Source: Dokdonia sp. 4H-3-7-5 (lineage in GTDB: Bacteria; Bacteroidota; Bacteroidia; Flavobacteriales; Flavobacteriaceae). Taken from it: 64,000 nucleotides of DNA. Positions within the stretch are counted from its first letter, which is position 1. Every line of letters begins with the position of its first letter. The stretch covers positions 1,178,001-1,242,000 of the forward strand of contig NC_015496.1 in assembly GCF_000212355.1 (NCBI RefSeq), given 5' to 3'. The notes under the pieces are model-generated. The model had not been told where the DNA came from, did no database searches, and was given only the letters and a program-made list of their open reading frames with translations. Positions 24,520 through 29,287 of the stretch are shown here, piece by piece. Both the position numbers and the translations under genes were made by a program.

Positions 24520-25425
24520 ATGAAAGAACAATTTGTAAACTACATGCTCAATCTTCAAGATCAAATTACTAGCACACTAGAGCAACTAGATGGTAAGGCC
24601 AGCTTTCAAGAAGATAACTGGAAACGCCCAGAAGGTGGTGGTGGTCGCACACGCGTGATTGAAAACGGAAATATCTTTGAAAAAGGAGGTGTAAACACAT
24701 CACAAGTGCACGGCGAGTTACCAGAGGCAATGCAAAAATACTTTGGTGTGAAAGATGCAAATTTCTTTGCCTGCGGTCTCTCACTGGTCCTTCATCCTAG
24801 CAGTCCTATGGTACCCACGGTACACGCAAACTGGCGTTATTTTGAGATGTACGACAGCGAAGGTAACATTGTAGATCAGTGGTTTGGCGGAGGTCAAGAC
24901 CTCACACCTTATTACCTTTTTGATGAAGATGCCACTCATTTTCATCAGACGTGCAAAACCGCTTGTGATGCACACGATGCTGACTTTTACCCAAAATATA
25001 AAGCACGTTGTGATGAGTATTTTTACAATGCACACCGCAATGAAGGTCGCGGTATAGGCGGTCTGTTCTTTGATTATTGCAAAGCTACCGAAGAGCGTTC
25101 TATGCAAGACTGGTACAATTTTGTGACCACTGTGGGCGACAGTTTCTTAGAGGCATATGCCCCTATTGTGGAGCGTAGAAAAGACACCGCTTTCGCGAAA
25201 GAACAAAAAGACTGGCAAGAAGTACGCCGTGGTCGTTACGTAGAATTTAACCTCGTACACGATAAAGGAACCCTTTTTGGTCTAAAAACAAATGGCCGTA
25301 TTGAAAGTATCTTAATGAGCCTTCCTCCCGTAGTACAGTGGAAATATGATCACCACCCAGCACCAGGAAGTGAAGAAGAACGATTAATAAAAGTGCTGCA
25401 GGAGCCAAAGGAGTGGGTTTCTTAA
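24520..25425 (+). CDS. hemF: Oxygen-dependent coproporphyrinogen III oxidase
   Basis: 301 residues. It converts coproporphyrinogen III to protoporphyrinogen IX using O2. The conserved block WFGGGQDLTPYYLFDEDATHFH, the HPSSPMVPTVHANWRYFE segment and the C-terminal GRYVEFNLVHDKGTLFGLKTNGRIESILMSLPP motif are all intact. It is the aerobic form, so this organism makes haem with oxygen, though an anaerobic HemN elsewhere is not excluded. Palindrome copy 10 encodes TAFAKEQ at a loop between conserved blocks. Confidence 0.96.
   Translation: MKEQFVNYMLNLQDQITSTLEQLDGKASFQEDNWKRPEGGGGRTRVIENGNIFEKGGVNTSQVHGELPEAMQKYFGVKDANFFACGLSLVLHPSSPMVPTVHANWRYFEMYDSEGNIVDQWFGGGQDLTPYYLFDEDATHFHQTCKTACDAHDADFYPKYKARCDEYFYNAHRNEGRGIGGLFFDYCKATEERSMQDWYNFVTTVGDSFLEAYAPIVERRKDTAFAKEQKDWQEVRRGRYVEFNLVHDKGTLFGLKTNGRIESILMSLPPVVQWKYDHHPAPGSEEERLIKVLQEPKEWVS
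25190..25201. repeat. Iterated palindrome copy 10 (in hemF)
   Basis: Perfect 12-bp CTTTCGCGAAAG inside a 14-bp match to the consensus (25188-25201). Read as Thr-Ala-Phe-Ala-Lys. Confidence 0.9.
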
Positions 25426-25489: not shown

Positions 25490-25509
25490 TTTTTCGCGAA
25501 AGCGAAAAA
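25490..25509. repeat. Iterated palindrome copy 11, remodelled as a stem with GAAA loop
   Basis: TTTTTCGC-GAAA-GCGAAAAA: the core TTTCGCGAAA is kept, but the flank gives an 8-bp stem with a GAAA tetraloop. It lies between convergent genes. Confidence 0.85.
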
Positions 25510-25513
25510 CCTC

Positions 25514-28177
25514 TTACCTCCAGATAGCAGACGTTTTTGTCTTGAGGCCATTCTCGGTATTCAAATAATGAAAACGTGCTTTAAGTAATTGCTTCCTGCC
25601 GTCTCGTGTTCTTGTAAAAGTCAGTCGTGCTTCATCACTCACAAAAATCTTCCAATATCTATAAAATAGGGAGGCATCTTTCTTATTTGTTGTAAATATC
25701 GAGGGTACGCTGTAGTAATTTGCAAGTCCAAATTTCTCTTGAAACCAACCGGACTGCTCAATCATATAGCGTGCATTATCTACGGGTTCTAGAAGTTCTT
25801 GCAGGCACGTTACAAAGAGTATTTCCTCCTTTGCCGTGGCGCCTGTGAGAAAACAAGCAATCTCCCCGTTAGGTAAATACTCTACGCCGAGCTTCATTTG
25901 CTGTAGTTGGGTGGTGATTAATAATTGCTCACGCAGTGACTTTAATACCACTTGTCCCATTTTATACACTTGCTTATCGATGCGACCAAATTTAATATAC
26001 TTGACAATCGCCTTGTAGGTTTTAGGCGCTAACGCGAGAACAATAGAGCCAATGGTAGCGTATATAAAAAACAACATTCCCTTAGAAAAATAGCTTCCTA
26101 CATTATTAATTATTATCTCTGGGATAGTCATAGTAATAACAGCTCCTAGCTGCATAAAACTATACTTTACAGCATCTTTATAATAGACCTTGTGCGTTTC
26201 GGCTTCTTTCTTCTTGCTACTTGGGCTAAAATCAAACTTTAGTTCTCGTACAAGTAACTTTCCAGTCCCTATAGCTTTATTCCAGCGCTCTTTAATATGG
26301 CTTCTGTTTGCTGCTAGCTGGAGCATTTTTTCATTAATCGTCTCCTTGTTAATTGTGGTTGTAGGCAGTGCAAACCGGTCGGCGCCATTTTCTATAAAAG
26401 GATCATTTTCAAGGGAGACTCCGCAAAAGGCGTCAAAACGTTTTACAAGTTTTGCCACATCTTCACCACCGTCATCAATGGTAGGATCTATACACGCGAG
26501 GTGCCAGATGGAAGCCACTTTATCTGGATTACCAGATTGCACGCGTATAGCACGACCACGCATCTGATTAGACATTACAAAAGAGCTTACGTAGGAACCA
26601 AGTACTAAAGTATTAATAGCAGGAGCATCCCATCCTTCTCCTAGCAAGGCAGCGGTGCCTACCAGAATTTGTATGTGACCATCTGTAAATAACTGTGTAA
26701 TGACACTCACAATAATACTCTTTGCTCGTTCCTTTGTTTTTACAATGATAAAATCCGTTCCATCAAGAGGCGTGATGGTATAATCATCATTTGAAAGTAC
26801 TTTGACGATTTCTCTTTCTAAGTGTTTATGTACAATGACAAGTGTACCCGTGAGAACAGCTAGTTTTTCTAATTTGTTTATTCCGTGAGAGCGTTCTACT
26901 ACTTGTGCAAGCGAGTGTCGTAGGTGATGAAAAATAGGAACAACACCAAGTTTATTTATATCTGCTAGGTCATCGTTTACGCTTTCTAAGAATTCCTTGC
27001 GTACATAATCCGTGAGGATTACTGCGCGTAAATCTTCACCCATTCCTTGGGATTCAAAATTTATGATCTCGCAAATACTTTTAAGTTTATTTGGACTTTG
27101 CGCAAGTGATTTATAGAGCTGGCGCTCTCCTTTAAAGTTCACCCGTTTATTATCAAAGGCACCTACCCTACGCAACTGCTTTTCTACATCCAGCAGCATC
27201 TCCTCATCTTCTAGAAAAAGCTCTCTGTCTGTAACAAGTATAAGTTGTAATAATCGCTCTACCCATTCTTGATTAAAAAGTGGTAATTGTGCCTTCTCGG
27301 TATCTACTCCAAGGACCTCTATTTTCTCTTTTGGGATCTCATGACCACGTGCTTGAAGATACACGAGAATGGCAACGTAAAAATCTGGTTTCTCGTAGAT
27401 AGGATCAAGTAATCCATCTGTCAATGTGTACAAAGTATGTTTTAGAACGAACGTTCCAAAATTTTCGTTTTCAACTAGAGAATCAATGAAACCCTTTGAT
27501 TTTACTCGGTATTTAAGAATATATTGAATTTGAGCTTCGTCTGGTTCGGAGAAATAAATGTAATCTTGATGCGCGCATAGATTTCCTTCTTTCACTAATT
27601 CTGGAACGCTTATTTCAATATCTATCGGACCGCATAATTGGAAGTATTTGGCTATTTCTCGTTGCTCACTATCATAAGGTGGTGTGGCGGTCAATGCGGT
27701 GAGCGTTCCTTCCAATTTTTTGAGGGCAAAAAGAGGTTTCCACCACTCATTTTTAAGGTGATGTGCTTCGTCTAATACAATGTGTTTGATGCCCGCTTCC
27801 GCGAAAAAAGCTACCAAACGATCCATGTCACCTTCCATTTCATTTTTTGAAAAAGCGTGTAGTGATTGGTAAGTAGCAAAAGTGATGTGTGCAGGCTCTT
27901 TTATATTTCGCGAAAGCGGAATAGTACAATCTTCCTCGCTCACAAAACACTCAAACATACGTTGCTCCCATTGATTACGTATCGTAATTGTAGGTGCAAG
28001 CACAAGCGTTTTCTCGTTTACACGACGCATCATCTCGAGTCCAAGTACTGTTTTACCCGACCCTGGAGGTGCGACTACATGTAAATGATCATCTGAAGCA
28101 TGGCTTTTAAAATCCTTTAAAAATCGCTCTTGATAGGTGCGCCACGGGTATATGAAATGAAAGGCTTCTTTAAGCAA
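25514..28177 (-). CDS. SF2 DEAH-box helicase with C-terminal membrane segments
   Basis: 887 residues. Motif I APPGSGKT (36-43), motif II DEAH (136-139), motif III TAT (163-165), motif V-like GTAALLGEGWDAPAINTLVLG (~507-527) and motif VI QMRGRAIR (538-545) form a complete two-lobe helicase core of the XPB/restriction-helicase kind. After residue 645 come two hydrophobic segments (~674-694 and ~700-718) and a ~165-residue domain I do not recognise. A membrane-attached helicase is unusual. It stands alone between convergent hemF and divergent hemB, with no nuclease or methylase neighbour. A defence role is possible but unproven. Confidence 0.85.
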   Translation of the reverse strand: MLKEAFHFIYPWRTYQERFLKDFKSHASDDHLHVVAPPGSGKTVLGLEMMRRVNEKTLVLAPTITIRNQWEQRMFECFVSEEDCTIPLSRNIKEPAHITFATYQSLHAFSKNEMEGDMDRLVAFFAEAGIKHIVLDEAHHLKNEWWKPLFALKKLEGTLTALTATPPYDSEQREIAKYFQLCGPIDIEISVPELVKEGNLCAHQDYIYFSEPDEAQIQYILKYRVKSKGFIDSLVENENFGTFVLKHTLYTLTDGLLDPIYEKPDFYVAILVYLQARGHEIPKEKIEVLGVDTEKAQLPLFNQEWVERLLQLILVTDRELFLEDEEMLLDVEKQLRRVGAFDNKRVNFKGERQLYKSLAQSPNKLKSICEIINFESQGMGEDLRAVILTDYVRKEFLESVNDDLADINKLGVVPIFHHLRHSLAQVVERSHGINKLEKLAVLTGTLVIVHKHLEREIVKVLSNDDYTITPLDGTDFIIVKTKERAKSIIVSVITQLFTDGHIQILVGTAALLGEGWDAPAINTLVLGSYVSSFVMSNQMRGRAIRVQSGNPDKVASIWHLACIDPTIDDGGEDVAKLVKRFDAFCGVSLENDPFIENGADRFALPTTTINKETINEKMLQLAANRSHIKERWNKAIGTGKLLVRELKFDFSPSSKKKEAETHKVYYKDAVKYSFMQLGAVITMTIPEIIINNVGSYFSKGMLFFIYATIGSIVLALAPKTYKAIVKYIKFGRIDKQVYKMGQVVLKSLREQLLITTQLQQMKLGVEYLPNGEIACFLTGATAKEEILFVTCLQELLEPVDNARYMIEQSGWFQEKFGLANYYSVPSIFTTNKKDASLFYRYWKIFVSDEARLTFTRTRDGRKQLLKARFHYLNTENGLKTKTSAIWR
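27794..27806. repeat. Degenerate palindrome variant (in helicase gene)
   Basis: CGCTTCCGCGAAA, one mismatch in the core; read as Phe-Ala-Glu-Ala on the minus strand. Confidence 0.55.
27906..27918. repeat. Iterated palindrome copy 12 (in helicase gene)
   Basis: TTTCGCGAAAGCG, full core with one consensus arm; read as Pro-Leu-Ser-Arg-Asn. Confidence 0.85.
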
Positions 28178-28303: not shown

Positions 28304-29287
28304 ATGCTACGCAGAAATCGCAGACTACGCACCTCAGAAGCTATACGTTCTATCGTGCGCGAGACATACATCACTCCTAATGATTTTATTGTTCCACTTT
28401 TTGTGGTGGAAGGCAAGGGTGTGAAAGAAGAAATAAACTCTATGCCTGGATATTACAGGTATAGCTTAGAGCTCATAGCCAAAGAGGTAAAAGAGTTGTG
28501 GTCAATGGGATTAAAATCTGTTTTGCTTTTTGTAAAAGTGCCAGATAACCTTAAAGACAACTCTGGAACAGAGGCTCTTAATAGTGACGGACTTATGCAG
28601 CGTGCAATTAGGACGGTTAAGGATGCATGTCCAGAAATGGTTGTGATGACAGATGTGGCATTAGATCCGTATTCTTCTTTTGGCCACGATGGAATTGTAG
28701 GTAACGGAGAGATTGTAAATGACGATACAGCCGCTGTTCTTGCCGAAATGGGACTGAGCCACGCTCGCGCTGGTGCAGATATTCTTGCACCAAGTGATAT
28801 GATGGACGGTCGTATTTTTGAAATGCGTAGCCTTCTTGAAGACGAAGGTTTTTATAACACTGGCATTATGAGCTATAGCGCAAAGTATGCGAGCTCTTTT
28901 TATGGCCCTTTCCGCGATGCACTAGATAGTGCTCCTGTAGACCTTAAGGATGTACCAAAGGACAAGAAAACATATCAGATGGATTTTGCAAATCGTGATG
29001 AGGCGATTAAAGAAACACTCATGGACATAGAGGAAGGAGCAGATATCGTGATGGTAAAACCAGGACTATGTTACCTAGATATTGTGCGTGACCTACGAGA
29101 AGCAGTAAATGTACCTATTGCTGTATATCAAGTGAGTGGCGAGTATGCAATGCTTAAAGCCGCTGCGGAAAAAGGATGGCTAGATCACGATAGCGTGATG
29201 ATGGAGCAAGTAATTGCCATTAAACGTGCTGGAGCAACCATGATGGCGAGTTACTTTGCAAAGGATGTCGTGAAGTTGATTAGTTAA
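28304..29287 (+). CDS. hemB: Porphobilinogen synthase (delta-aminolaevulinate dehydratase)
   Basis: 327 residues. It condenses two 5-aminolaevulinate molecules to porphobilinogen. Both active-site lysines are in place: Lys194 in GIMSYSAKYASSFYGPFR and Lys252 in ADIVMVKPGLCYLD. The usual zinc-binding cysteine triad is replaced (VALDPYSSFGHDG, ~118-130), so this is a metal-site variant of the Mg2+-dependent kind. The gene is divergent from the helicase and followed 23 bp later by a DUF3291 gene, likely in the same transcript. Confidence 0.96.
   Translation: MLRRNRRLRTSEAIRSIVRETYITPNDFIVPLFVVEGKGVKEEINSMPGYYRYSLELIAKEVKELWSMGLKSVLLFVKVPDNLKDNSGTEALNSDGLMQRAIRTVKDACPEMVVMTDVALDPYSSFGHDGIVGNGEIVNDDTAAVLAEMGLSHARAGADILAPSDMMDGRIFEMRSLLEDEGFYNTGIMSYSAKYASSFYGPFRDALDSAPVDLKDVPKDKKTYQMDFANRDEAIKETLMDIEEGADIVMVKPGLCYLDIVRDLREAVNVPIAVYQVSGEYAMLKAAAEKGWLDHDSVMMEQVIAIKRAGATMMASYFAKDVVKLIS

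What the first reader, a model, noticed from the sequence alone, without database searches (positions are those of the whole stretch)
25514..28177. SF2 DEAH helicase with two membrane segments and an unknown C-terminal domain
All core helicase motifs are intact, yet residues ~674-718 look like two membrane helices followed by a domain I cannot place. Membrane-tethered helicases are rare, and several phage-defence systems use such architecture. The gene is solitary, so it could be a single-gene defence or a DNA/RNA handling factor at the membrane.
Basis: partly seen in the sequence, partly recalled or inferred. Interest (0 to 1): 0.65.

Follow-up and report, generated by a model that had tools for sequence, protein, structure and literature searches.

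The report
Lone membrane-linked helicase beside heme genes
This marine bacterium carries an undescribed DNA/RNA motor protein that is probably anchored in the membrane and ends in a domain of unknown type; relatives of the gene hop between bacteria as single mobile cassettes, which suggests an optional protective function, but what it does is not yet tested.

Summary
An 887-aa SF2 DEAH helicase lies on the minus strand at 25514-28177 (TTG start), alone between hemF and hemB. Its ATPase motifs are invariant in 55 of 55 aligned members. A hydrophobic helical pair (672-690, 700-718) follows, then a confidently predicted C-terminal domain (pLDDT 89) with no Pfam or PDB counterpart found. The segments are plausible, not certain, membrane helices.

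It is not a universal housekeeping gene: 20 of 149 sampled genera of the family (one a remnant), 10 of 296 sampled genomes of the phylum. Two modes exist. In Flavobacteriaceae one lineage sits at hemF|hemB, broadly tracks the HemB+HemF tree, is under purifying selection, and is absent from most genomes. A second lineage crosses Bacteroidota classes; in four loci it has integron-cassette ends, and the arrays of one such genome also hold methylase-, Fic- and PD-Lambda-2-like genes. No attC was found at the window copy. Best reading: a self-sufficient, membrane-tethered nucleic-acid-sensing ATPase, most likely single-gene defence against invaders (inferred; no assay). The core is closest to XPB/Hef/RIG-I-type helicases; membership in XPB or Pbe fails, and none is shown for Hna or Hachiman.

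The parts
25514..28177 (-). SF2 DEAH helicase gene, 887 aa, TTG start, convergent with hemF and divergent from hemB
   Evidence: ORF; Pfam; start context; purifying selection (dN/dS 0.07-0.08 overall against two congeners)
27563..28177 (-). RecA-like domain 1 (residues 1-205), motifs I GSGKT (39-43), II DEAH (136-139), III TAT (163-165)
27107..27562 (-). helical insert (residues about 206-357) between RecA1 and RecA2, at the place of the XPB thumb / Hef-RIG-I Hel2i (inference from the model; those names recalled)
   Evidence: AlphaFold model; fold matches
26363..27106 (-). RecA-like domain 2 (residues about 358-605), GEGWDAP and motif VI QMRGRAIR (538-545)
26108..26164 (-). first hydrophobic segment, residues 672-690, possible membrane helix 1
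   Evidence: helix 665-691 in model
26024..26080 (-). second hydrophobic segment, residues 700-718, probable membrane helix 2
   Evidence: helix 701-730 in model
25517..25987 (-). C-terminal domain, residues 731-887, alpha-beta fold for which no known counterpart was found; conserved K735 E794 R803 Y804 K832 W842 R856 R861 R868 W886 (each in 50 or more of 55)
   Evidence: alignment, conservation, model, searches
24520..25425 (+). hemF (coproporphyrinogen oxidase), one flank of the conserved site (name recalled from its sequence, not scanned)
28304..29287 (+). hemB (porphobilinogen synthase), other flank of the conserved site (name recalled from its sequence, not scanned)

Best explanation
It is an accessory, self-sufficient SF2 nucleic-acid motor. 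Shown: an intact DEAH ATPase core with a large helical insert (in the predicted model), a hydrophobic helical hairpin in most sampled members, a conserved C-terminal domain for which no known fold was found, single-gene organisation, and two modes of inheritance (a resident at hemF|hemB in Flavobacteriaceae and a mobile form that includes integron-type cassettes). Inferred: the hairpin holds the protein on the inner face of the inner membrane with both the motor and the C-terminal domain in the cytoplasm. The motor loads on double-stranded or forked nucleic acid, and the basic C-terminal domain reads a feature of invading DNA or RNA. ATP-driven movement then blocks it near its point of entry, or clusters the hairpins and damages the membrane. 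The most likely benefit is single-gene defence against phages or other invaders.
For: Motifs invariant in 55 of 55. Purifying selection on every part (dN/dS 0.02-0.17 by part against two congeners; hairpin 0.06, C-terminal domain 0.07-0.10). Core folds like XPB, Hef, FANCM, INO80 and RIG-I (VIA Z 19.4 to 16). Accessory: 12 of 18 genomes of the genus, own included, 20 of 149 sampled genera; decayed remnant still between hemB and hemF in G091, broken copy in G004. Second lineage with copies up to 91.6% identical in DNA between different classes (L074, L079) and, where long flanks can be compared, likeness mostly limited to the gene and up to about 175 bp. Cassette ends: a start box complementary over 10 bp to a box about 10 nt after the stop in L014, L071, L076 and L087; 0 of 48 resident copies reach 10, and 23 of 1219 other ORFs do, some of them in the same arrays. 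attC model hits just upstream of the helicase in L014, L071, L079 (training sites) and L074 (independent, E 2.6e-4). Among 35 genes of the G031 arrays, one member each matches type II methylase, SoFic and PD-Lambda-2 A and B families. A review passage (PMC12409362) reports that at least 16 of 179 V. cholerae integron cassettes gave anti-phage activity.
Against: No functional assay. The window copy is in a mostly vertical lineage, beside housekeeping genes, with no attC found, unlike a typical defence gene. No PADLOC family matches beyond the generic helicase core. Neighbours of non-hem copies carry only scattered defence-family hits (214 proteins, no matched background run, the list capped at 25 of 50 families). 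No control was run for either. No recognisable nuclease or other effector. Hydropathy is not decisive. No full-length relative among 24 confirmed hits in viral contigs; the two near-full-length 'phage' records are unannotated gut contigs of 6 and 9 kb.
Confidence: 0.5

Rival explanations
1. A membrane-associated DNA or RNA handling factor of the cell itself, such as DNA uptake, repair of DNA at the membrane, or handling of membrane-bound transcripts. It is kept where useful and lost elsewhere, with no immune role.
For: Old fixed place between housekeeping genes, tree broadly concordant with HemB+HemF, purifying selection, XPB-like repair-helicase core.
Against: Absent from most sampled genera; the other lineage moves alone, with cassette ends in several loci.
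Confidence: 0.3
2. A soluble XPB/RadD-type repair helicase whose hydrophobic hairpin packs inside the protein or at a dimer interface and never enters the membrane.
For: First segment weak (KD 1.39 in the window; a charged residue in 52 of 55 members); an alphaproteobacterial relative lacks the pair yet keeps the rest.
Against: Flanks more positive than the loop in 48 of 55 members and long predicted helices; second segment mean KD 1.90.
Confidence: 0.15
3. A selfish or neutral cassette passenger without benefit to the host, occasionally fixed by chance.
For: Solitary, mobile in one lineage, lost or broken in some genomes.
Against: dN/dS about 0.08 overall and retained motifs in 55 of 55 members.
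Confidence: 0.05

Closest known systems
XPB / Rad25 DNA-repair helicase (archaeal XPB, TFIIH XPB)
   Same: Closest core by sequence (NF045503 E 5.5e-16 over residues 12-200; A2 profile to 2fz4 E 1.2e-15) and by fold (Z 19.4, 378 residues, rmsd 4.8 A).
   Different: Far below the family cut-off (58 of 610 bits); has a hydrophobic hairpin and an unplaced C-terminal domain.
RIG-I / MDA5 / Dicer / FANCM / Hef helicases
   Same: Large helical insert between the RecA lobes and similar overall helicase fold (RIG-I rank 1, and Dicer, FANCM, Hef and MDA5 among the first 20; RIG-I, FANCM and Hef Z 16.1-17.4).
   Different: C-terminal domain has only one well-conserved cysteine (C775 in 49 of 55), so no conserved four-cysteine zinc site like that of RIG-I (recalled).
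PbeA of the archaeal PbeABCD phosphorothioate-linked defence system
   Same: PADLOC match for part of the family (28 and 30 of 55 members for two PbeA models at E <= 1), e.g. 2e-12 for L014, over the helicase core.
   Different: Partial match of the core only; the window protein itself is not among the matches.
Hna single-gene anti-phage helicase
   Same: Single protein of similar length (845 aa) with an SF2 core and a C-terminal domain (passages of PMC13381803).
   Different: Hna is DinG/XPD-like with a PD-(D/E)XK nuclease; here the core is XPB-like and no nuclease motif or domain was recognised.
Integron gene cassettes, including those with anti-phage genes
   Same: Relatives L014, L071, L076 and L087 have cassette ends; attC-like sites lie beside L014, L071, L079 and L074. 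Integrons are already reported from Bacteroidota (one passage of PMC8618304).
   Different: About 2.7 kb for one gene; the window copy shows no attC.

Membership tests
SF2 DEAH helicase | Motifs I, II, III and VI intact | tested here: met
   55 of 55 rows
XPB / Rad25 | Score above the curated NCBIfam cut-off | tested here: not met
   58.2 bits against 610
PbeA / PbeABCD | Full-length PbeA match | tested here: not met
   Core-only partial matches in relatives, none listed for the window protein at E <= 1
PbeA / PbeABCD | Linked partner genes PbeB-D | tested here: inconclusive
   Window flanks are hemF and hemB and no widely recurrent neighbour was seen, but PbeB-D were not searched for by name
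Hna | C-terminal PD-(D/E)XK nuclease | tested here: inconclusive
   No Pfam nuclease, E794 the only acidic residue in 90% or more of rows, no PDB fold match; a missing fold match does not exclude it
Hachiman (HamB) | Paired HamA (DUF1837) gene and Ski2-like core | tested here: inconclusive
   No widely recurrent neighbour and nearest core by profile is XPB, but HamA was not searched for by name. HamB features from passages of PMC12278908
RIG-I-like receptors | Helical insert between the RecA lobes | tested here: met
   Seen in the predicted model only, with fold matches to RIG-I and Hef
RIG-I-like receptors | Zinc-binding four-cysteine C-terminal domain (recalled) | tested here: not met
   One conserved cysteine only
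Integron gene cassette (relatives) | Cassette start box complementary to the box after the stop, with attC site | tested here: met
   10-bp boxes in 4 of 40 non-hem copies (a fifth, L086, 8 bp in similar geometry); attC folds and hits
Integron gene cassette (window copy) | Same | tested here: not met
   0 of 48 resident copies tested reach 10 bp; no attC model hit in the window at E <= 1
Integral membrane protein | Experimentally shown membrane insertion | not testable with these tools
   Only hydropathy and charge evidence

The most novel reading that the evidence does not exclude
A single-protein bacterial immune sensor with RIG-I/Hef-like layout: a membrane-anchored SF2 motor whose new type of C-terminal domain recognises invading nucleic acid at the inner membrane. 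It spreads as an unusually large integron cassette and was once fixed as a long-term resident between two heme genes in Flavobacteriaceae.
Probability: 0.25. Interest if true: 0.85.

Novelty: new variant of a known kind. Interest (0 to 1): 0.6.

Why it matters
Membrane-anchored SF2 helicases seem little described: a full-text search of the held library for four such phrases returned 17 papers, and none of the 17 titles names a bacterial membrane helicase (listing only). If the defence reading holds, this would be a one-gene system combining motor, membrane anchor and an unplaced sensor domain, sitting outside defence islands at a fixed chromosomal site and so easily missed by neighbourhood-based discovery. 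The contrast between a mobile cassette form and a long-term resident form at one site would give a natural case for asking how accessory immune genes become permanent.

Tried and rejected
Universal housekeeping gene: rejected by distribution. Defence island at hemF-hemB: rejected; 54 of 103 helicase-free intervals are under 160 bp, and 15 of the wider ones opened hold ordinary-looking genes (TPR, PhzF-like, YchJ-like, antiporter-like and unknown lipoproteins, judged by eye). Constant partner: none; the most frequent neighbour family is histidine kinases in 5 of 42 loci, and several three-locus families come from shared surroundings of L097, L103 and L079 or L064. Nuclease in the C-terminal domain: not recognised. 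Known fold for the C-terminal domain: none found in PDB or viral libraries; absence does not prove novelty, and no library of predicted cellular proteins was at hand. Phage-carried copies: 24 viral-contig hits, the longest spanning about 180 of 887 residues. Canonical integron integrase: no hit above the TIGR02249 cut-off in 5 genomes, and all 14 control genomes also ring below it, so sub-cut-off hits alone mean little. A first attC model over 12 sites had no common base pair and was not used; a model of 7 similar sites was used instead, so its hits favour that type and its training sites match by construction. A weak 27% match over 125 residues (E 5e-5) to a helicase in the 495-bp hemF-hemB gap of G017 (L152) may be a remnant or chance and is not counted. 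Paper searches for membrane helicases, RIG-I-like antiphage helicases and the hemB context listed no paper that I recognised as being on this family; they are limited to the held open-access library.

Rows dropped before counts: A2 holds 54 of the 80 genome loci plus the window (near-duplicates and some short contigs left out). PADLOC neighbour scans used 214 of 231 listed neighbours (all 8 of L103, 4 of L065 and 5 of L095 left out as near-copies of L097, L064 and L085) with no matched background, so no enrichment is claimed; L023, L024, L027 and L070 were left out of that list beforehand. L087 (Tissierellales) is a 3.2-kb MAG contig and may be a binning error. L074, L076 and L077 are contigs of 3-6 kb, so how far likeness extends beyond the gene cannot be judged there. 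Four loci fetched (L147-L150) were not analysed.

Full report
What is there. The ORF is real: 887 codons on the minus strand, 25514-28177, starting with TTG. No ATG lies between the upstream stop and the conserved PWR motif, and the frame opens at the same TTG in four of five other congeners checked. It lies alone between hemF (24520-25425, +) and hemB (28304-29287, +), in the opposite direction to both; those gene names are recalled from the sequences. Pfam's hits above cut-off are ResIII, DEAD, SNF2-rel_dom and Helicase_C, all in the helicase core. NCBIfam's best match is XPB, far below its cut-off. PADLOC gives only weak helicase-core hits.

Anatomy. A 55-row alignment (A2) shows motifs I, II, III and VI kept in 55 of 55 rows. 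The AlphaFold model (mean pLDDT 82, pTM 0.74) has two RecA-like domains with a large helical insert, a hydrophobic helical hairpin at low confidence, and a C-terminal alpha-beta domain. Folded alone, that last domain is confident (pLDDT 89, pTM 0.84). The core resembles XPB (Z 19.4), Hef, FANCM, INO80 and RIG-I. The C-terminal domain finds no solved relative by profile (one hit, E 0.63), no Pfam family for the window, and no convincing fold in PDB (best Z 4.1) or viral models. Its conserved charged residues are mainly basic, with one acidic residue in 90% or more of rows, which suggests ligand or nucleic-acid binding rather than a metal nuclease (inference).

Membrane question. The two segments have mean KD 1.57 and 1.90 over 55 members, and flanks are on average more positive than the loop in 48 of 55; the first segment holds a charged residue in 52 of 55. 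Two segments of KD 1.6 or more occur in the region in 26 of 55 members, one in 22, none in 7; but segments of that hydropathy occur elsewhere in the protein in 38 of 55. The alphaproteobacterial relative L023 lacks the pair but keeps the C-terminal domain. I rate a membrane hairpin as probable, not shown.

Distribution. The gene is found in 12 of 18 genomes of the genus (own included), one copy broken (G004), and in 15 of 59 genomes searched overall, one of those (G027) being only a weak core hit. It is found in 20 of 149 genomes of the family, each of a different genus, one a remnant, and in 10 of 296 genomes of the phylum at E <= 1e-20. By contrast hemF is in 127 and hemB in 136 of the same 149. 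Plasmid and gut-contig relatives at 29-34% identity occur in Paenibacillus, Tritonibacter, Rhodovulum (two pieces, 63% covered) and human-gut records.

The hemF|hemB resident. hemF and hemB lie in order on one strand within 20 kb in 117 of 127 genomes holding both. The helicase or its remnant lies between them in 14, and in 103 it does not (four of these carry it elsewhere); 54 of the 103 gaps are under 160 bp. In the genus, of six genomes without the gene, four have hemF and hemB 2-95 bp apart, one has a 495-bp gap with a doubtful remnant, and one has a changed order. G091 keeps a decayed N-terminal fragment in place, so loss from this site is directly seen. The helicase tree of 46 copies largely agrees with the HemB+HemF tree; for example the same 14-row clade of the window's genus with Aequorivita, Ulvibacter, Marinirhabdus, Patiriisocius and Leeuwenhoekiella is starred in both, while some rows, such as two Maribacter copies, disagree; no formal test of agreement was run. 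In the 90-row tree all 49 hem-site copies need one change of label, against a shuffled mean of 30. dN/dS is about 0.08 overall against close congeners, 0.02-0.17 by part.

The mobile lineage. Other copies mix families and classes of Bacteroidota; for example the Cyclobacterium and Profundicola copies are 91.6% identical in DNA over the gene. Between long loci of this lineage the likeness at the gene mostly ends within about 175 bp of it; the within-genus pairs L081/L092 and L097/L103 are alike further out, and some separate matches occur away from the gene (for example L075/L088, L079 with L097 and L103, L093/L102). A repeat of about 130 bp recurs between same-strand genes in L014 and L071. 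Read closely, these are attC-like: a GTTRRRY box about 32 nt before the start is complementary over 10 bp to a box about 10 nt after the stop in L014, L071 and L076; a similar 10-bp pair bounds L087, and L086 shows 8 bp. That is 4 of 40 non-hem copies at 10 bp; of 1219 control ORFs 23 reach 10 bp (some lie in the same arrays), and 0 of 48 resident helicases do. The bottom strands fold into long imperfect hairpins. A covariance model of seven sites from L014, L071 and L079 finds further sites in L014 (four), L079 and L074, and none at E <= 0.01 in the window or in any hem-site locus searched; two hem-site loci have hits at E 0.08 and 0.56. In whole genomes, with at most 150 candidates scored per genome, it reports 95 hits in G031, mostly in two arrays, 22 in G477, 7 in G476, 7 in the window's own genome G000 and none in G478. 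Of 35 genes taken from the G031 arrays, one member each matches type II methylase (2.9e-122), SoFic (9e-50) and PD-Lambda-2 A and B (2.1e-41, 8.8e-46) families, with no control set.

How it most likely works. Shown: intact motor, hairpin in most members, conserved C-terminal domain, autonomy, dispensability, mobility in one lineage. Inferred: membrane tether, nucleic-acid recognition by the C-terminal domain, ATP-driven blocking or membrane damage, and a protective benefit. I put defence at about one half, because integron cassettes are known to include many anti-phage genes (passages of PMC12409362), the gene stands alone, and it is gained and lost. Against it stand the mostly vertical, housekeeping-like setting of the window copy and the lack of any direct test.

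Comparison with known systems. Hna is the nearest in concept, but it is DinG-like with a nuclease (passages of PMC13381803). HamB works with HamA (passages of PMC12278908). PbeA shares only the core with some relatives. None was shown to be a family to which this protein belongs. It should be treated as an unassigned SF2 group with an orphan C-terminal domain.

Noticed in passing
window, 23 sites of the 13-base core, e.g. 950-965, 25492-25504, 27906-27918 (inside the helicase gene): The palindrome CGCTTTCGCGAAAGCG (13-base core: 35 strand matches in the window, 0 expected) occurs 505 times in the window's genome and 138-711 times in each of 14 other genomes of the genus, 0 times in 9 genomes of other families. 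Of 40 other genera of the family one (G027) has 495 copies, four have 1-4 and 35 have none. A highly iterated palindrome of unknown role, frequent in two genera.
   Followed up: partly
L175 (own genome C1:2535000-2554500): The window's own genome holds an attC-like array (4 strong and 3 weaker model hits) with a tyrosine recombinase ORF (274 aa, L175:16336-17160) beside it, and two copies of a 422-aa ORF that looks by eye like a group II intron reverse transcriptase.
   Followed up: partly
L175 16336-17160, L176 17123-18295, L177 5325-6506, L178 8283-9125: Recombinases beside the attC-like arrays of four genomes: three score 182-197 bits to integron integrase TIGR02249, below the 265-bit cut-off, in pieces that skip roughly model positions 180-238; the fourth is broken into two ORFs. 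They may be integron integrases without the usual insert; all 14 control genomes also ring below the cut-off, so this is a lead only.
   Followed up: partly
G031:C1 2.215-2.263 Mb and 2.723-2.792 Mb (L014, L176, L179 are parts): Two very large cassette-like arrays (most of the 95 attC-model hits in this genome) in an unnamed Flavobacteriaceae genome, with many unknown genes and some defence-like ones.
   Followed up: partly
L014:13788-16679 (-): A second SF2 helicase (963 aa) sits in the same array as the helicase cassette and matches PbeA at 1.9e-15 over its core.
   Followed up: no
L013, L036, L037, L039-L042, L048, L090 and others, between helicase and hemF: A recurrent small lipoprotein-like ORF (about 200 aa, motif like VGYTYWWxESGPF) and, in many loci, a YchJ-like ORF lie between the helicase and hemF; both are also seen in hemF-hemB intervals without the helicase.
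   Followed up: no
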